64,000 nucleotides of DNA from Curvibacter sp. PAE-UM (GTDB taxonomy: Bacteria > Pseudomonadota > Gammaproteobacteria > Burkholderiales > Burkholderiaceae_C): assembly GCF_001432305.1 (NCBI RefSeq), contig NZ_KQ483358.1, forward strand, positions 2,911,710 to 2,975,709. The letters run 5' to 3'. Shown in pieces: positions 34,631-41,009 of this stretch. The notes beneath the pieces are model-generated. The model saw only the letters and a list, made by a program, of their open reading frames with translations, ran no database searches and was not told where the DNA came from. A program made the position numbers and the translations under genes. The first letter of the stretch is position 1; the number at the start of each line of letters is the position of its first letter.

Positions 34631-35356
34631 ATGGTCCACAAGCCGCGCATCCTCATCGTTGAAGACGAATCAGGCATCGCCGATACGTTGCAGTACGTCT
34701 TGGCGACCGACGGGTTTTCCCCGGTCTGGTGCAGCACGGCAGCTGAAGCCATGCACCAGTTCGAAACCGACCTGCCGGCACTGTGCGTGCTGGATGTCGG
34801 ACTGCCGGACCTCAATGGCTTCGACCTGTTCAAGCGCCTGCAAGCGCTGCCGGGCGGTGCGCAGGTTCCCATGCTGTTCCTGACCGCGCGCAGCGACGAG
34901 ATCGACCGGGTGGTGGGCCTGGAGCTCGGGGCCGATGACTACATCGCCAAACCCTTCTCGCCGCGCGAACTGGTGGCGCGCGTGCGCAGCATCCTGCGGC
35001 GCAGTGTGCGCCAGGGGGCGGCCCCCGCTGCGCCCGCCGCCACCCCGCTGGCACGGCCTTTTGCGCTGGATGAAGAGCGCCACCAGATCCGCTTCTACGG
35101 GCAGCTGCTGGAGCTCTCGCGCTACGAGTACGGCCTCCTGCGTCTGCTGGTCCAGCGCCCGGGCCGCGTGTACACCCGCGACGAGTTGCTGAGCAAGGTG
35201 TGGGATGAAACGAGCGCGAGTTTTGACCGGACGGTGGACGCCCACATCAAGACCCTGCGCGCCAAGCTCAAGGTCATCGCCCCCGGCACGGACCCCATCC
35301 GCACGCTGCGCGGCACGGGCTACGCCCTGAGCGAGAACCTGCCGGACTCGGTATGA
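34631..35356 (+). CDS. creB: CreB-like OmpR-family response regulator
   Basis: A 241-residue two-component regulator with a receiver domain (RILIVEDESGIADTLQYVL; phosphoacceptor Asp55 in LDVGLPDLNG; Lys in YIAKPFSPRE) and an OmpR-type winged helix (LLVQRPGRVYTRDELLSKVW, ending TLRGTGYAL). It resembles E. coli CreB throughout and its stop overlaps creC (ATGAGC). The promoter of the downstream VIT-domain gene has three TTCAC-N6 repeats, the CreB tag, so this regulator most likely drives the exosortase operon. Confidence 0.9.
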   Translation: MVHKPRILIVEDESGIADTLQYVLATDGFSPVWCSTAAEAMHQFETDLPALCVLDVGLPDLNGFDLFKRLQALPGGAQVPMLFLTARSDEIDRVVGLELGADDYIAKPFSPRELVARVRSILRRSVRQGAAPAAPAATPLARPFALDEERHQIRFYGQLLELSRYEYGLLRLLVQRPGRVYTRDELLSKVWDETSASFDRTVDAHIKTLRAKLKVIAPGTDPIRTLRGTGYALSENLPDSV

Positions 35357-36807
35357 GCAAGCGCAGCCGGATCTTCATCGGCATCATCCTGATCTACACG
35401 GCCAGCATCGCCTTCATGCTTTACCGCGTGGTCGCCGACCTGGACCCGCGCTACCGCGAATCGGCCGAGGAATCGCTGGTGGAGACCTCGCAGCTGCTGG
35501 CCAGCCTGATCGAGCAGGACGTGCGGGATGGCGCCCTGGACACGGCGCGTCTCGAACCCGTGTTCCAGTCGCTGTATGCGCGTCGCTTCAACGCCCAGAT
35601 CTTCGGCGTCACCAAGACCCGTGTCGAGCTGCGGGTCTACGTGACGGACCGCGGCGGGCGGGTGGTGTTCGACTCCACCGGACAACTGCTCGGTACAGAT
35701 TTTTCCCAATGGCGCGACGTGCGCATGGCCCTCAAGGATGAATACGGCGCGCGCACCACGCCGGATATCGCGGGCGATGCCAACAGCTCGGTGATGTACG
35801 TCAGTGCCCCGGTGCGCTCCCTGCCCGGGGGGAATGGCGAGATCATCGGCGCGGTCACGGTGGGCAAACCGGTGCAGAGTTTCGGGCAGTTCGTGGTGGC
35901 CGCCCGCAACAAGACGCTGTACGTCGGGCTGGTGTCCGTGGTGGCCGTGCTGGTGCTGGTCGTGATGGTCTCGGTCTGGCTGGTGCGCCCCTTCGGCCTG
36001 ATTTCAGACTATGTGCGCTACGTGCGGACACAACGGCGTTTCAGCCCGGCGCGCCTGCTGCGCCGCGCCATGGATGTGTTCAGTGCGGCCTACGACGAGA
36101 TGCGCGACGCGCTGGCCGGGCGCAACTACGTGGCCGACTATGTGCAGACCCTCACCCACGAGGTCAAAAGCCCCCTGTCGGCCATCCGTGGCGCCGCCGA
36201 ACTGCTGCAGGAACCCATGTCCGAAGCGCAGCGCCAGCGCTTCCTGGACAACATCCAGCGCGAAACCGGGCGCATCCAGGAGATGGTGGACCGCATGATG
36301 GAGCTCACCGCGCTGGAAACCCGGCGCGTGCTGGAGCGCGTCCAGCCCGTCGACATGAAGCCCCTGCTCGAAGAGCTGGCCGCCTCGGCCCAGGGCGCCG
36401 CAGCCCAGCGCGGCATCCGCATCGAACTGGACGCGGCGGAAAATGCCACGGTGGAAGGCGACCCCTTCCTGCTGCGCCGCGCCCTGAGCAACCTGCTGGA
36501 CAACGCCCTGGATTTCTCGCCCGAGGGCAGCGTCGTGCAACTGTCGCTGGCGGTCAGGCGGCGCCACGTGATCATCACCGTGCGCGACCAGGGGGCCGGC
36601 ATCCCCGACTACGCGCAGGACAAGGTGTTCGAGAAGTTCTACTCGCTGGCGCGCCCGCACACGCTCAAAAAGAGCACGGGCCTGGGCCTCTCCTTCGTCA
36701 AGGAAATCGCAGCGCTGCACCACGGGCGCATCGAACTGCACAACCGCCCTGACGGCGAGGGACCGGGCGCCATCGCCAGCCTGACCCTGCCCCGCGCGCC
36801 CGGCTAG
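35353..36807 (+). CDS. creC: CreC-like sensor histidine kinase
   Basis: A 484-residue membrane sensor kinase matching CreC. It has an N-terminal membrane segment (FIGIILIYTASIAFMLYRVV), a periplasmic sensor region (about 30-190, including VYVTDRGGRVVFDSTGQ and SSVMYVSAPVR), and a second membrane segment near 195-218. A HisKA domain follows, with phosphoacceptor His269 in LTHEVKSPLSAIRGAAELL, then a catalytic domain (NLLDNALDFSPEG, DQGAGIPDYAQDKVFEKFYS, TGLGLSFVKEI). It overlaps creB by four bases. The periplasmic ligand is unknown; envelope or metabolic state is suggested by E. coli. Confidence 0.92.
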   Translation: MSKRSRIFIGIILIYTASIAFMLYRVVADLDPRYRESAEESLVETSQLLASLIEQDVRDGALDTARLEPVFQSLYARRFNAQIFGVTKTRVELRVYVTDRGGRVVFDSTGQLLGTDFSQWRDVRMALKDEYGARTTPDIAGDANSSVMYVSAPVRSLPGGNGEIIGAVTVGKPVQSFGQFVVAARNKTLYVGLVSVVAVLVLVVMVSVWLVRPFGLISDYVRYVRTQRRFSPARLLRRAMDVFSAAYDEMRDALAGRNYVADYVQTLTHEVKSPLSAIRGAAELLQEPMSEAQRQRFLDNIQRETGRIQEMVDRMMELTALETRRVLERVQPVDMKPLLEELAASAQGAAAQRGIRIELDAAENATVEGDPFLLRRALSNLLDNALDFSPEGSVVQLSLAVRRRHVIITVRDQGAGIPDYAQDKVFEKFYSLARPHTLKKSTGLGLSFVKEIAALHHGRIELHNRPDGEGPGAIASLTLPRAPG

Positions 36808-36839
36808 GCGCTGGCCGCCCCACCGGGGCATGGCAGCAC

Positions 36840-36866
36840 TTCACACGGACTTCACGCCGTTTTCAC
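36840..36866 (+). promoter_or_regulatory. Triple CreB-type tag (TTCAC direct repeats)
   Basis: TTCAC occurs at 36840-36844, 36851-36855 and 36862-36866, each separated by exactly six bases, in the 150-base gap between creC and the VIT-domain gene. E. coli CreB binds TTCACnnnnnnTTCAC, so this is two overlapping full tags. Spacing of 11 bases places the three half-sites on one face of the helix, as needed for OmpR-type dimers in tandem. Confidence 0.8.
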
Positions 36867-36957
36867 ACAGCGCTGCCGCACTTCCAACTGTCTTCTCATT
36901 GGCCCCGGATGCTAGGGACACCGTGCACTTCCGCACGCATGTTCAGGAGCAAGCATC

Positions 36958-39039
36958 ATGGCCACCGTCTTCCCCCACGCCCCCCACGACAGCGCCAGCG
37001 CCGCCCTGGCCCGCTGGACCTGGATGGCCACCACCAGCCTCTCGGTCGCGTGTTTCGTGGGGCTCATCGCCCAGCCCGTCCATGCGCGGGACGACGACAG
37101 CCCGCGCCTGAAAACCGAGAGCCCGTACTTCTTCGTCAAGAGCGAAGACCCCGAGCTCGACCAGCTGCCGCTCAAATCCACCCGGGTGGATGTGCGCATC
37201 TCGGGCGTGATCGCCGATGTGACGGTGACGCAGCACTACAGGAATGAAGGCCAGCGCGCCATTGAAGCCAGGTACGTGTTTCCCGGCTCCACCCGGGCCG
37301 CCGTGCACGGCATGAACGTGCGGCTGGCCGACCGCCTGATCACGGCCCAGATCCGCGAGAAGAACCAGGCCCGCATCGACTACGACAAGGCGAAAAGCGA
37401 GGGCAGAACGGCAGCCCTCCTGGAGCAGCAATTGCCCAATGTGTTCCAGATGAACGTGGCCAACATCCTGCCCGGCGACGACGTGAAGGTCGAGCTGCGC
37501 TACACGGAACTGCTGGTGCCCACCAGCGGCAACTACCAGTTCGTCTTCCCCACCGTGGTCGGCCCGCGCTACAACAGCCCGCAGTCCGGCCAGGCCCAGG
37601 CGCCCTGGGTCAGCCAGCCCTACCTGAGCGCTGGCGAAGCCTCCCCCGCCGGCTTTGACATCCGCGTGGCGCTGCACACGCCCATCGGCATCAAGGAGGT
37701 GCGCTCCCCCTCGCACGACATCCGCCGTGACAAGGAAGAAGGCAGCGCGATCGAGGTGGGCTTGAGCCCAGGCGCGCGCGCCGCCAACAACCGCGATTTC
37801 ATCCTGGACTACCGCCTCGCGGGTGACCGCATCGAATCCGGCGTGCTGCTCTACAAGGGTGGTGAGGAAAACTTCTTCCTGGCGATGATCGAGCCGCCCA
37901 AGGCGGTGCCGGCCAGCGCCATCTCACCGCGCGAGTACATCTTCGTGGTGGACATCTCGGGCTCCATGCACGGCTTCCCGCTGGACACCGCCAAGACCCT
38001 GCTGCGCGAGTTGATCGGCAACCTGCGCCCCAGCGACACCTTCAATGTGCTGCTGTTCTCCGGCAGCAACCGTTTCCTGAGCCCGCACCCGGTCCCGGCG
38101 ACGGGTGCCAACATCCAGCAGGCCATCCGCACCATCCAGGAGATGGGCGGTGGCGGCAGCACCGAGCTGATCCCCGCCCTCAAGCGCGTCTACGCCCAGC
38201 CCAAGGCGGCCGACGTGTCGCGCACCGTGGTGGTCGTGACCGATGGCTATGTGACCGTCGAGCGGGAAGCCTTCGAGCTGATACGCAAGAACCTCTCGCA
38301 GGCCAATGTGTTCTCCTTCGGCATCGGCTCCTCGGTCAACCGCCATCTCATGGAAGGCATGGCGCGCGCGGGCATGGGAGAGCCTTTCATCATCACCCGG
38401 CCTTCGGAAGCCGCCGCGCAGGCGGCCCGCTTCCGCAAGATGATCGAATCGCCGGTACTCACCAGCGTCAAGGCGCGCTTCGACGGCCTGGATGTCTACG
38501 ACGTGGAGCCGCAGCAACTGCCCGATGTGCTGGGCGAGCGCCCGGTGATCGTCTTCGGCAAATGGCGCGGCGAAGCCCGGGGCAAGCTCATCATCGAAGG
38601 CCAGACGGCCAACGGGCCTTTTCACCAAGCCCTGCCCGTTGGCAGCAGCGGCGACACCAGCCCGTCCAGCAGCACGGCGGCCCTGCGCCACCTGTGGGCA
38701 CGCCATCGCATCGCCAGCCTGTCGGACCAGGAGGCACTCGAAGGCGGTGGTGCCCTGGGCCAGCGCATCACCGAACTGGGCCTGAAGTACAAGCTGCTCA
38801 CGCAGTACACCAGTTTTGTCGCGATCGACCAGCTGGTGCGCAACCCGGCCCCGCACAACGGCGCCAGCGTGAACCAGCCCTCGCCCCTGCCTGAAGGAGT
38901 GAGCAACCTGGCGATCGGTACCGAGGTGCCCGGCACGCCCGAGCCGGCGACCTGGGGCGCCGTCCTCGTGCTGCTGTCGGTGCTGGCCCTGCTGGCCCGA
39001 CGCGCCCGCCGCCATCACCCCCACCGTTACACGGCCTGA
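36958..39039 (+). CDS. VIT and von Willebrand A domain protein with PEP-CTERM-like exosortase sorting tail
   Basis: A 693-residue secreted protein. A signal peptide lies near residues 20-43 (TSLSVACFVGLIAQPVHA). The VIT domain follows, about residues 55-180 (DVRISGVIADVTVTQHYRNEG, FPGSTRAAVHGMNVRL). Then comes a von Willebrand A domain, 325-500, with an intact MIDAS (Asp332, Ser334, Ser336 in DISGSMHG). A PEP-CTERM-like tail ends the protein: PEP at 661-663, a hydrophobic helix, and a basic RRARRHH cluster. This is the substrate layout of an exosortase, which is encoded 2 bases downstream. It parallels the VIT/vWA targets of dedicated sortases in marine proteobacteria. Probably a surface adhesin or metal-dependent protein binder. 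Confidence 0.9.
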   Translation: MATVFPHAPHDSASAALARWTWMATTSLSVACFVGLIAQPVHARDDDSPRLKTESPYFFVKSEDPELDQLPLKSTRVDVRISGVIADVTVTQHYRNEGQRAIEARYVFPGSTRAAVHGMNVRLADRLITAQIREKNQARIDYDKAKSEGRTAALLEQQLPNVFQMNVANILPGDDVKVELRYTELLVPTSGNYQFVFPTVVGPRYNSPQSGQAQAPWVSQPYLSAGEASPAGFDIRVALHTPIGIKEVRSPSHDIRRDKEEGSAIEVGLSPGARAANNRDFILDYRLAGDRIESGVLLYKGGEENFFLAMIEPPKAVPASAISPREYIFVVDISGSMHGFPLDTAKTLLRELIGNLRPSDTFNVLLFSGSNRFLSPHPVPATGANIQQAIRTIQEMGGGGSTELIPALKRVYAQPKAADVSRTVVVVTDGYVTVEREAFELIRKNLSQANVFSFGIGSSVNRHLMEGMARAGMGEPFIITRPSEAAAQAARFRKMIESPVLTSVKARFDGLDVYDVEPQQLPDVLGERPVIVFGKWRGEARGKLIIEGQTANGPFHQALPVGSSGDTSPSSSTAALRHLWARHRIASLSDQEALEGGGALGQRITELGLKYKLLTQYTSFVAIDQLVRNPAPHNGASVNQPSPLPEGVSNLAIGTEVPGTPEPATWGAVLVLLSVLALLARRARRHHPHRYTA

Positions 39040-39041
39040 TC

Positions 39042-39932
39042 ATGGCACTGCCCCGCCTGCTCCAGATGCCGGGTTTCGTGCGCTATGGCATCCGCATCGA
39101 CACCACCCCCGAGTGGCGCTGGCTGGCCCTGCTGGCCGCTGCACTCTGGCCCACCTGGTGGTGGATGGGCCAGCGCATGTTCGACGGCTCGGATGACCCG
39201 CTGGGCCTGCTGGCCCTGGCCGCGCTCGGCCTGCTGGTCTGGCAGCACCGCCGACTGCTGCGTCCGGCCCCCCGGCTGGGCTGGCTGGCCATCGCCCTGG
39301 CCTGTGCGCTGGCAGCAACCGTCACGCGCACGCATCTGCCGCCCCTGGTCAGCGCCCTCGTGGCCTTGCTGGCGCTCTCGGCCGCCCTGGCGGCCTTTCT
39401 GCCGCCGCATATCGCCACCCTCCCAGTATTGGGCTTGTCCGTGCTGTCGCTGCCGCTGCTGGCATCGCTGCAGTTCTACGCCGGGTACCCCCTGCGTGTC
39501 ATCACGGCCGAAGCCACGCGCTGGCTGCTGGGCCTGCAGCACGAGGTGGCCCGCAGCGGCAGCAGCCTGCTGGTCAATGGGCATCTCGTCATCGTGGACG
39601 CGCCCTGCTCCGGCGTGCAGATGGTCTGGCTGGGTTATTTCACGGCCTGCGTCGTCGCGCTGCACGGCCCCCGCGCAGGCATGGCCGGCCCCAGGCTCGG
39701 CAACCGGGCCTTCCTGGCGCGGCTGCCTGCCGTGAGTGCGCTGGTGCTCACGGGCAATGTGGTGCGCAACACGCTGCTGGTGGCGGCCGAGGCGAGCGAC
39801 CGGCATCTGCCCGGCTGGGCGCACGACACCGTGGGCCTGCTGGTGCTGGCGGTCGTCTGTGGCGGCATTGGATGGGTCATGGGAAAAGCAACCGGGCAAC
39901 ACACTTGCGGAGGCCGGCATGCGTCTGTTTGA
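39042..39932 (+). CDS. Exosortase/archaeosortase family membrane transpeptidase
   Basis: A 296-residue polytopic inner-membrane protein with about eight hydrophobic helices. It has the exosortase active site: Cys189 in VDAPCSGVQMVWLGYF, Arg242 in GNVVRNTLLV and His261 in GWAHDTVGLLVL. Such enzymes cut PEP-CTERM-type tails and attach the protein to the envelope. It begins 2 bases after the VIT/vWA gene and overlaps the EpsI-like gene by 14 bases, so the three form a unit. I do not assign an Xrt letter. No exopolysaccharide genes are nearby, unlike EpsH systems. Confidence 0.9.
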   Translation: MALPRLLQMPGFVRYGIRIDTTPEWRWLALLAAALWPTWWWMGQRMFDGSDDPLGLLALAALGLLVWQHRRLLRPAPRLGWLAIALACALAATVTRTHLPPLVSALVALLALSAALAAFLPPHIATLPVLGLSVLSLPLLASLQFYAGYPLRVITAEATRWLLGLQHEVARSGSSLLVNGHLVIVDAPCSGVQMVWLGYFTACVVALHGPRAGMAGPRLGNRAFLARLPAVSALVLTGNVVRNTLLVAAEASDRHLPGWAHDTVGLLVLAVVCGGIGWVMGKATGQHTCGGRHASV

Positions 39933-40479
39933 CAACCTCTTCCTCAACCGCGTGCTGCACAAAAGCCTGTGGCTCCTGCTGCTGCCCTTGTGTGCGATCT
40001 GGGGCGCCGTGCAGACCTTCGGCAACGGCCCGCCGGATGACACCCCGGAGATCGGCGCCGGCATCTGGGCCGAATTTCCCGCCCAGTGGAACGGGGCCAC
40101 CCTGCGCCCACTGGCCTTGAGCGAGGTCGAGCACCGGTTTGCGCAACGCTTTCCGGGCACGATCGCGCGCCTGACCGATGGCCGGCATGTGCTGGTGCTG
40201 CGCACGGTGAACCGGCCCACCCGCATGCTGCACCCGGCCGCCGACTGCTACAAGGGGCTCGGCTACCGCATCAGCGACGAACGGCTCGAAGCCATGACGG
40301 GTCAGGCCAGGTGGCGCTGTTTCATCGCCGAACGTGGCGGCCAGCAGCTGCGCGTGTGCGAACGCATCGAGGATGCGCAGGGCCAGACCTTCACCGACAC
40401 CTCGGCCTGGTACTGGGCTGCCGTCGCCGGAAAATCCACCGGCCCGTGGCGGGCCGTGACGGTGGCAAGGCCACTGTGA
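39919..40479 (+). CDS. EpsI-like exosortase-associated protein
   Basis: A 186-residue protein with one N-terminal membrane helix (LHKSLWLLLLPLCAIWGAVQTF) and a periplasmic domain (RPTRMLHPAADCYKGLGYRISD, RWRCFIAERGGQQLRVCERI, TDTSAWYWAAVAGKSTGPW). EpsI/DUF3485-type proteins are encoded beside, or fused to, exosortases and share an HPxxCYxxxGW-like core; here HPAADCYKGLGY. It overlaps the exosortase gene, implying translational coupling and a joint role in processing the VIT/vWA protein. Exact biochemical role unknown. Confidence 0.75.
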   Translation: MRLFDNLFLNRVLHKSLWLLLLPLCAIWGAVQTFGNGPPDDTPEIGAGIWAEFPAQWNGATLRPLALSEVEHRFAQRFPGTIARLTDGRHVLVLRTVNRPTRMLHPAADCYKGLGYRISDERLEAMTGQARWRCFIAERGGQQLRVCERIEDAQGQTFTDTSAWYWAAVAGKSTGPWRAVTVARPL

Positions 40480-40586
40480 AGGACTCGCATGCCCGACGGC
40501 GCCAGCGTGATCTTTTTCACATGTAGTCCGGCATCGACAAGGGCTATTCCCCTTCCAGATAATCGGTCCCAACAGGAGACGACCCC

Positions 40587-41009
40587 ATGCTGATCCAGCT
40601 GACCTACGCCAGCCACTCTTCCCGCGCACTCGGCCCGGCCGACGTGAAAGACATACTGCAAACCTCGCAGCGCAACAACTCCGCCGTCGGCGTGACCGGC
40701 GCGCTGTGCCTGGCCAACGGCCTCTTCCTGCAGCAGCTCGAAGGCGACCGTGACGTGGTCAACCAGGTCTACCTGCGCATCCTCAAGGACAGCCGCCATA
40801 CCGAGCCGTCCATCCTGGACTTCGGCGAGATCGCCTCACGCCGCTTCAGCAACTGGAACATGGGCCTGATCTCCTCGATCGCCGAGAACCGCCAGATCTT
40901 CCTGAAGTACTCGCGCAAATCCGAGTTCGATCCCTACAGCATGAGCCCGTCTTCGCTGCGCGGCTTCTTCGACGAGATCGTGCAGGGCGGGGTGCGCTGG
41001 ATCGGGTGA
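40587..41009 (+). CDS. BLUF-domain blue-light sensor
   Basis: A 140-residue stand-alone BLUF photoreceptor binding FAD. Photochemical residues are in place: Tyr7 (LTYAS), Asn30/Asn31, Gln49 in FLQQLEGD, and Trp90/Met92 in FSNWNMG. The core ends near residue 95, followed by a short helical C-terminal cap. No output domain is fused, so it should act through a protein partner, as PixD/YcgF-type short BLUFs do. Its own GGAGACGA ribosome binding site and monocistronic layout are clear. c-di-GMP enzymes elsewhere in the window are possible, but only speculative, partners. Confidence 0.95.
   Translation: MLIQLTYASHSSRALGPADVKDILQTSQRNNSAVGVTGALCLANGLFLQQLEGDRDVVNQVYLRILKDSRHTEPSILDFGEIASRRFSNWNMGLISSIAENRQIFLKYSRKSEFDPYSMSPSSLRGFFDEIVQGGVRWIG

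What the first reader, a model, noticed from the sequence alone, without database searches (positions are those of the whole stretch)
34631..40479. A CreBC-like two-component system wired to a single-target exosortase system
creB and creC are followed directly, in the same orientation, by a VIT/vWA protein with a PEP-CTERM-like tail, an exosortase (Cys189/Arg242/His261) and an EpsI-like partner, with overlaps of 2 to 14 bases. In enterobacteria creBC is followed by creD; here an exosortase module takes that place. Known VIT/vWA sortase-target systems of marine proteobacteria use a classical sortase and their own two-component pair, so this looks like a convergent version built with an exosortase. 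I see only one candidate substrate and no exopolysaccharide genes. The biological role of the surface-anchored VIT/vWA protein is open.
Basis: partly seen in the sequence, partly recalled or inferred. Interest (0 to 1): 0.85.

Follow-up and report, generated by a model that had tools for sequence, protein, structure and literature searches.

The report
CreB-controlled single-target exosortase cassette
A stress-sensing gene pair (creBC) sits next to, and very probably switches on, a small cassette that makes one envelope protein and the dedicated membrane enzyme that processes it; the same switch sequence lies before that cassette in nearly all relatives examined, even in several where the sensor genes lie elsewhere.

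Summary
The exosortase belongs to a named family, exosortase Q (NF012182). In 107 assessable distinct loci from relatives, 100 have an exact tag before the VIT gene (101 with one hand correction); the other 6 have one mismatch. XrtQ occurs in 48 of 299 relatives; 47 of these have CreC (75 of the other 251 do). Of 122 CreC genomes, 120 have CreD, XrtQ or both. In this genome XrtQ is the only exosortase found and the VIT protein its only clear substrate. A CreC tree corrects "takes creD's place": XrtQ goes with its own CreBC lineage; a same-genus relative has the other lineage with creD. Most likely mechanism: CreC senses an envelope or growth signal, CreB~P activates the cassette, XrtQ cleaves and sorts the VIT/vWA protein. 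Regulation and cleavage are inferred from sequence. New variant of a known kind; the protein's role is open.

The parts
34631..35356 (+). creB, response regulator (receiver + winged helix)
   Evidence: NF008296 309.5 bits over cut-off 273; PF00072, PF00486
35353..36807 (+). creC, sensor histidine kinase, of the XrtQ-associated CreC lineage
   Evidence: NF008312 587.7 bits over cut-off 356; tree position
36840..36866 (+). three TTCAC half-sites (36840, 36851, 36862), i.e. two overlapping exact cre tags TTCACN6TTCAC, 118 and 107 bp before the VIT start codon
   Evidence: motif from PMC3660660 (passages); an exact tag at the like place in 100 of 107 distinct loci of relatives
36882..36897 (+). 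second, degenerate pair TTC-N8-TTC (TTCCAACTGTCTTCTC), possibly a weaker CreB site near the promoter
   Evidence: such a pair found in 97 of 101 sequences (window included), offsets mostly 19-22 and 30-31; 1.4% in shuffles
36908..36913 (+). possible -10 element (GATGCT); weak guess from position only
   Evidence: sequence; the promoter scan found no sigma-70-type site here
36958..39039 (+). VIT/vWA envelope protein, 693 aa: signal-peptide-like start, VIT, vWA with DISGS motif, C-terminal tail
   Evidence: PF08487 120 bits, PF13768 66.3 bits; sequence match to PARP4 and ITIH chains; fold match of a modest model to ITIH1 6fpy
37951..37965 (+). codons for D-I-S-G-S (residues 332-336), metal-ion-dependent adhesion site motif of vWA domains
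   Evidence: D332, S334, G335, S336 invariant in 107 aligned proteins; the motif's meaning is recalled
38920..39036 (+). PEP-CTERM-type sorting tail (VPGTPEPATW + TM helix + RRARR)
   Evidence: in this genome tail-model E 2.0e-20, next best 0.045
39042..39932 (+). exosortase Q (XrtQ), only PF09721 match in the genome
   Evidence: NF012182 376.5 bits over cut-off 270; single match in G000; C189/R242/H261 invariant
39919..40479 (+). XrtQ partner, 186 aa: one N-terminal helix plus alpha/beta domain; related to the C-terminal part of exosortase T
   Evidence: NF033770 4.5e-9, 31 of 31 members; fused to XrtQ in one frame in 12 of 124 locus entries; model pLDDT 89.6; no PDB fold match at E<=0.001

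Best explanation
This is a dedicated exosortase cassette that is a direct CreB target. CreC (inner-membrane kinase) phosphorylates CreB; CreB binds the tandem TTCAC repeats about 105-120 bp before the VIT gene and activates one transcript, VIT/vWA-xrtQ-partner. The VIT/vWA protein is exported by its signal peptide and held by its PEP-CTERM tail; XrtQ (Cys189/Arg242/His261) cleaves at the PEP motif, with the partner protein, and releases or re-anchors the ectodomain in the envelope. The ectodomain, built like an ITIH heavy chain with a metal-site vWA, then acts as an envelope-maintenance or adhesion factor. Shown by sequence: gene order, tag, its conservation, co-occurrence, lack of other clear substrates. 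Inferred: CreB binding and activation, one transcript, XrtQ cleavage, final location, function. The confidence is for 'CreB directly controls the cassette and XrtQ serves this one protein'.
For: Tag: two exact overlapping copies in the creC-VIT gap, 4 in the whole genome, 0 for the reversed pattern. Conservation: exact tag within 250 bp before the VIT start in 100 of 107 assessable distinct loci of relatives; L077, whose start the script mis-picked, makes 101; the other 6 have one mismatch at like distance; out-of-place tags: 3 in 1.86 Mb, one of them L077's own. By genome: 41 of 44 assessable XrtQ genomes (window and L077 included), among them 9 of 11 in which creC is not within the fetched 9 kb and 23 of 26 without creD. 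Median distance to start 118.5 bp, 10-90% 105-128. Positive control: creD, the textbook CreB target, has an exact tag upstream in 26 of 38 fetched CreD-type loci, one mismatch in 10, none in 2. Co-occurrence: CreC over cut-off in 47 of 48 XrtQ genomes versus 75 of 251 others. Of 17 CreCs not wholly inside the fetched XrtQ stretches, 16 fall in the XrtQ-type CreC group. Substrate: VIT matches over 400 bits occur in 45 of 299 genomes, all XrtQ genomes; tail model 2.0e-20 for VIT, next best 0.045 in this genome. Outside the family: G607 has creBC-VIT-xrtQ-partner with an exact tag.
Against: No binding, expression or cleavage data. The co-occurrence and CreD/XrtQ Fisher tests are confounded by descent: on the CreC tree XrtQ needs only 2 changes. 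In S. maltophilia the creD promoter is negatively regulated by CreBC (PMC4689548, abstract), so the sign of control could differ. G188 has XrtQ but only a CreD-type CreC and a one-mismatch tag; G205 and G079 also lack an exact tag; in G017 the VIT gene matches only in its last part and no tag lies in the fetched stretch. Exact tags over 48 genomes number 230 against 81 for the reversed control, so a single tag elsewhere may well be chance. The named loci are the best 80 of 227, a choice that favours close relatives.
Confidence: 0.82

Rival explanations
1. The tag before the VIT gene is a creD promoter element: it belongs to a divergent creD, or is left from one, and the VIT cassette merely sits beside it.
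For: In 52 of the 127 locus entries (duplicates included) a creD lies in the fetched stretch on the strand opposite to VIT; in Variovorax paradoxus L130 creD and VIT diverge across the tag.
Against: 23 of 26 assessable XrtQ genomes with no creD keep an exact tag before VIT; the window's genome has no creD.
Confidence: 0.08
2. Chance adjacency or simple co-inheritance of a gene block without regulation.
For: XrtQ needs only 2 changes on the CreC tree, so the block could have travelled as one unit.
Against: The tag stays in 9 of 11 genomes where creC is not within the fetched 9 kb; out-of-place tags are nearly absent from 1.86 Mb.
Confidence: 0.05
3. CreB regulates the cassette, but XrtQ also processes other proteins, so it is not strictly single-target.
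For: In G000 weak tail-model matches exist at E 0.045-0.18 and 3 PF07589 matches, best 0.0147. G098, 99% complete and with XrtQ as its only exosortase, has a PF07589 match at 8.1e-7.
Against: PF07589 at this threshold also rings in 6 of 14 control genomes, none over cut-off; large sets of PEP-CTERM tails occur mainly in genomes with a second exosortase.
Confidence: 0.12

Closest known systems
Exosortase Q (XrtQ), NCBIfam NF012182
   Same: The window enzyme is a member (376.5 bits, cut-off 270).
   Different: The family model names the enzyme; a link to CreB control was not found in the papers searched. The full NCBIfam text on the family was not seen.
Proteobacterial dedicated sortase system (TIGR03784/03785/03787/03788)
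   Same: VIT/vWA target homologous to TIGR03788; model names show an own two-component pair. The LPXTG member occurs once per genome beside its sortase (PMC3237569, passages).
   Different: Here the enzyme is an exosortase, the tail PEP-CTERM, and the pair is CreBC (creB: 309.5 bits for CreB, 135.3 for TIGR03787).
XrtN system with VIT-domain target (TIGR04476/TIGR04477)
   Same: Exosortase plus VIT-domain target.
   Different: The window VIT protein does not match TIGR04477 at E<=0.01 and its enzyme scores 41.5 bits for XrtN (cut-off 200). Two distant loci (L168, L169) combine XrtN-like targets with XrtQ-like enzymes.
CreBC-CreD regulon (E. coli, Pseudomonas, Aeromonas BlrAB)
   Same: CreB and CreC over their cut-offs; TTCACN6TTCAC tag (PMC3660660, passages).
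   Different: Output is a sorting cassette and creD is absent; the CreC belongs to a separate lineage.
Exosortase T (NF033770)
   Same: Its C-terminal part is related to the partner; 12 of 124 locus entries have XrtQ and partner fused in one frame.
   Different: In the window they are two genes; XrtQ scores 32.1 bits for XrtT (cut-off 250).

Membership tests
Exosortase Q (NF012182) | score over curated cut-off | tested here: met
   376.5 against 270 bits
Exosortase Q (NF012182) | catalytic Cys/Arg/His of exosortases | tested here: met
   C189, R242, H261 invariant in 39 sequences; catalytic role recalled
CreBC two-component system | CreB and CreC models over cut-off | tested here: met
   309.5/273 and 587.7/356
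CreBC two-component system | cre tag before a target gene | tested here: met
   36840-36866
CreBC two-component system | creD present as neighbour or target | tested here: not met
   no CreD in G000
CreBC two-component system | CreB binds tag and changes transcription | not testable with these tools
   needs bench work
Proteobacterial dedicated sortase system | target over TIGR03788 cut-off | tested here: not met
   424.6 against 551.65
Proteobacterial dedicated sortase system | classical sortase TIGR03784 beside the target, LPXTG tail | tested here: not met
   the enzyme beside the target is an exosortase and the tail PEP-CTERM-like; the rest of the genome was not searched for TIGR03784
PEP-CTERM substrate | signal peptide plus PEP motif, TM helix, basic end | tested here: met
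   read from sequence, 33-row tail alignment; no signal-peptide program was run
PEP-CTERM substrate | match to PF07589 model | tested here: not met
   no match at E<=0.01 in the protein scan
EpsI | match of partner to an EpsI/DUF3485 family | tested here: not met
   no Pfam match at E<=10; in NCBIfam at E<=1 exosortase T (31 of 31) and U (10 of 31) recur, no EpsI family

The most novel reading that the evidence does not exclude
There are two CreBC lineages with alternative membrane outputs: one drives CreD, the other drives a dedicated exosortase cassette whose VIT/vWA protein does CreD's job of guarding envelope integrity, so that an exosortase is here an inducible part of an envelope-stress response rather than of exopolysaccharide export.
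Probability: 0.35. Interest if true: 0.8.

Novelty: new variant of a known kind. Interest (0 to 1): 0.64.

Why it matters
Exosortases are mostly known (recalled) from exopolysaccharide settings with many substrates, which makes their purpose hard to test. Here one enzyme, one clear substrate, one partner and one regulator with a known DNA motif form a minimal system, present in culturable bacteria such as Variovorax paradoxus. It would also give CreBC a second conserved output and a clue to what CreD does: 120 of 122 CreC genomes have CreD, this cassette, or both.

Tried and rejected
Rejected: (a) literal exchange of creD for the exosortase behind the same creBC: the CreC tree puts CreD-only and XrtQ genomes in two groups. 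(b) Fisher tests (p 2.7e-20 for XrtQ with CreC; p 1.5e-13 for CreD against XrtQ) as independent proof: they ignore descent. (c) A wider cre regulon in this genome: of the two other tags one lies 18 bp from the start of a minus-strand gene that I read as vWA CoxE-like, on the opposite strand, and one inside a gene that I read as formate-dehydrogenase-like; neither gene was family-scanned. (d) Fold of the partner: good model (pLDDT 89.6) but no PDB match at E<=0.001. (e) Fold of the VIT protein: modest model (pLDDT 64.9), best match ITIH1 over 602 columns, TM 0.46. (f) sigma-70 promoter scan: no hit in the creC-VIT gap. (g) The first genome search (PF13505) served only to get the genome handle. 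(h) Paper searches with nothing on the system.

Rows dropped before counts: one search used 47 genome loci plus 80 named loci (best 80 of 227 found); 3 had no VIT, 13 were duplicates, 4 lacked a start or 200 bp upstream; the window is not among the 107. One search used 71 CreC sequences: 31 on the XrtQ side (window and G129 included) and 40 of the 73 CreD-only genomes; one search added 23. One search left out G017, G104, G148, G118 as not assessable. Tree method was quick (SH-aLRT, no bootstrap).

Full report
1. What is there. On the + strand: creB 34631-35356, creC 35353-36807, a VIT/vWA gene 36958-39039, exosortase 39042-39932 and a partner gene 39919-40479. creB and creC pass their curated NCBIfam cut-offs; the exosortase is exosortase Q (NF012182, 376.5 bits, cut-off 270); the VIT/vWA protein resembles the target of the dedicated sortase system (TIGR03788, 424.6 bits) but fails its cut-off of 551.65. 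The stated overlaps are wrong at one joint: creC and the VIT gene are 150 bp apart.

2. The missed element. That gap holds TTCAC-N6-TTCAC-N6-TTCAC at 36840-36866: two overlapping exact copies of TTCACN6TTCAC, the cre/blr tag of CreB-regulated promoters (PMC3660660, passages). The window has 2 matches, shuffles give 0.02; the whole genome has 4, the reversed pattern 0. The other two look non-functional: one lies 18 bp before a minus-strand gene on the opposite strand, one lies inside a long open frame.

3. Conservation. XrtQ matches at E<=1e-30 in 48 of 299 genomes of the family, 46 of them over the cut-off; 27 of 141 genera. I fetched the stretch around XrtQ in the other 47 and 80 named loci (the best 80 of 227; Variovorax, Rhodoferax, Polaromonas, Xenophilus, Ramlibacter and others). 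In the 124 of these 127 entries that hold all three, VIT, xrtQ and partner stand in that order on one strand. creB, creC and VIT are together in 87 entries; in 86 creBC lies upstream on the same strand, but within 600 bp of the VIT match in only 26; the exception, L149, has creBC on the other strand. Of 107 distinct loci with an assessable start, 100 have an exact tag within 250 bp upstream; L077 has one before what I read as the true start, which my script mis-picked; the remaining 6 have a one-mismatch tag at like distance. Out-of-place tags number 3 in 1.86 Mb, one of them L077's. The last tag starts 105-128 bp before the start codon in the middle 80%. Further on lies a second, degenerate pair (TTC-N8-TTC) in 97 of 101 sequences, 1.4% in shuffles; tandem sites suggest cooperative CreB binding (inference).

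4. Linkage without adjacency. Counting genomes: 41 of 44 assessable XrtQ genomes have the exact tag (window, and L077 by hand, included); of the 11 in which creC is not within the fetched 9 kb, 9 have it; of the 26 without creD, 23 have it. Some of these gaps reflect fragmented assemblies or distances near 10 kb, but in G091 (about 45 kb) and G267 (about 40 kb) creC and xrtQ are well apart on one contig, and in G005, G193 and G105 they lie on different contigs. CreC over cut-off occurs in 47 of 48 XrtQ genomes (exception G104, 76% complete) and in 75 of 251 others.

5. CreD and XrtQ. Of 122 CreC genomes, 73 have CreD only, 29 XrtQ only, 18 both, 2 neither. One of the two (G266, 84% complete) has an XrtQ-type CreC on a 4.1-kb contig with a tag about 1.2 kb behind it; the other (G129) has the tag right after creC, then a short stretch and a transglycosylase-domain gene (PF00912, 141.9 bits). 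In CreD-type genomes the tag stands before creD: exact in 26 of 38, one mismatch in 10, absent in 2. This is the positive control for reading the tag as a CreB site in this family. In 52 of 127 locus entries creD lies in the same stretch as the cassette on the opposite strand; in Variovorax paradoxus the two diverge across the tag.

6. Against a simple swap. On a tree of 71 CreC proteins all 40 CreD-only rows form one side of a branch (SH-aLRT 100) and all XrtQ rows, with G129, the other; XrtQ needs 2 changes, CreD 8. With 23 more rows the split stays except for one row (support 91 and 86): of 17 CreCs not wholly inside the fetched XrtQ stretches 16 fall on the XrtQ side; G188, an XrtQ genome, falls on the CreD side. 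So the window's creBC is a separate lineage that goes with XrtQ; its same-genus relative G145 carries the other lineage with creD, while the other three same-genus genomes searched (G014, G229, G298) have no XrtQ, no CreC over cut-off and no CreD. The Fisher tests are therefore not independent evidence; the tag in unlinked loci is better evidence.

7. One substrate. XrtQ is the only exosortase match in this genome. A model of XrtQ-target tails finds the VIT tail at E 2.0e-20 and nothing better than 0.045 elsewhere in it. Genomes with many PEP-CTERM matches are mostly those with a second exosortase; exceptions are G104 and G281 (8 and 6 matches, 76% and 89% complete), G163 (3, 70%), and G098, 99% complete with one exosortase and a match at 8.1e-7. 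VIT matches over 400 bits occur in 45 genomes, all with XrtQ; the three XrtQ genomes without one are G017, G104 and G148. G015 and G126 hold a second such protein.

8. The proteins. The ectodomain aligns by sequence with PARP4 (5.5e-32) and ITIH4 (1.5e-20) and its model with ITIH1; the vWA motif DISGS is conserved. The partner has an N-terminal helix and a compact alpha/beta domain related to the C-terminal part of exosortase T in 31 of 31 members, with invariant R102, L104, H105, P106 and C110. In 12 of 124 locus entries (one pair is a duplicate) XrtQ and partner share one open frame, so the partner looks like a detachable C-terminal domain of a long exosortase (inference).

9. Wider occurrence. 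In a class-wide draw XrtQ passes its cut-off in 2 of 369 genomes, the window's and G607 of another family, which has the same order of genes and the tag. Two distant loci (L168, L169), below the cut-off, pair XrtQ-like exosortases with XrtN-like VIT targets and a divergent two-component pair; for L168 the best family models of the pair are CreB and CreC, both below cut-off; no exact tag was found there.

10. Known and new. Enzyme, kinase pair, tag and the VIT/vWA family are each known. A 2011 paper described VIT/vWA proteins with LPXTG, GlyGly-CTERM or PEP-CTERM tails and the notion of a dedicated one-target system (PMC3237569, passages). I found no paper with both exosortase and CreBC, no relevant paper with XrtQ or 'exosortase Q', and only one unrelated listing with exosortase and inter-alpha-trypsin (PMC6168606, listing); further searches listed nothing on such a system beyond PMC3237569. 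The library holds open-licence papers only, and the exosortase survey PMC3256604 is not held. CreD maintains envelope integrity in S. maltophilia (PMC4689548, abstract), and in P. aeruginosa loss of PBP4 activates CreBC (PMC2654508, passages); this is the basis for proposing an envelope role, which is inference.

Noticed in passing
L171:7441-9070 (G129): A CreC genome with neither CreD nor XrtQ has an exact cre tag just after creC, followed by a gene with a peptidoglycan transglycosylase domain (PF00912): perhaps a third CreBC output.
   Followed up: partly
L130:3734-7672: In Variovorax paradoxus a gene with PBP transglycosylase and transpeptidase domains follows creD on the minus strand, between creBC and the VIT cassette.
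   Followed up: partly
L168:3429-9768 and L169:1522-8358: Other gammaproteobacteria pair an XrtN-like VIT/PEP protein, an XrtQ-like exosortase and partner with a divergent two-component pair (CreBC-like in L168) and no exact cre tag.
   Followed up: partly
L051, L058, L064, L068, L076, L078, L103, L124, L125, L146, L148, L160: XrtQ and its partner lie in one open frame, as in exosortase T.
   Followed up: partly
G015:C1:2770953-2772683 and G126:C111:84110-85837: Second copies of the VIT/vWA protein (428 and 417 bits) in two XrtQ genomes; the tail search listed no second tail there better than E 0.1.
   Followed up: no
L067 (G017): The VIT gene matches only over its last 293 codons and no cre tag was found in the fetched stretch, although xrtQ and partner are present; creC is about 1.9 Mb away.
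   Followed up: no
L082:7501-7516: An exact cre tag 18 bp before the start of a gene that I read as vWA CoxE-like, on the opposite strand; probably chance.
   Followed up: partly
window 40587-41009: A BLUF blue-light sensor gene (PF04940) follows the cassette on the same strand; a promoter-like site at 40534-40563 precedes it, at a number no higher than chance.
   Followed up: no
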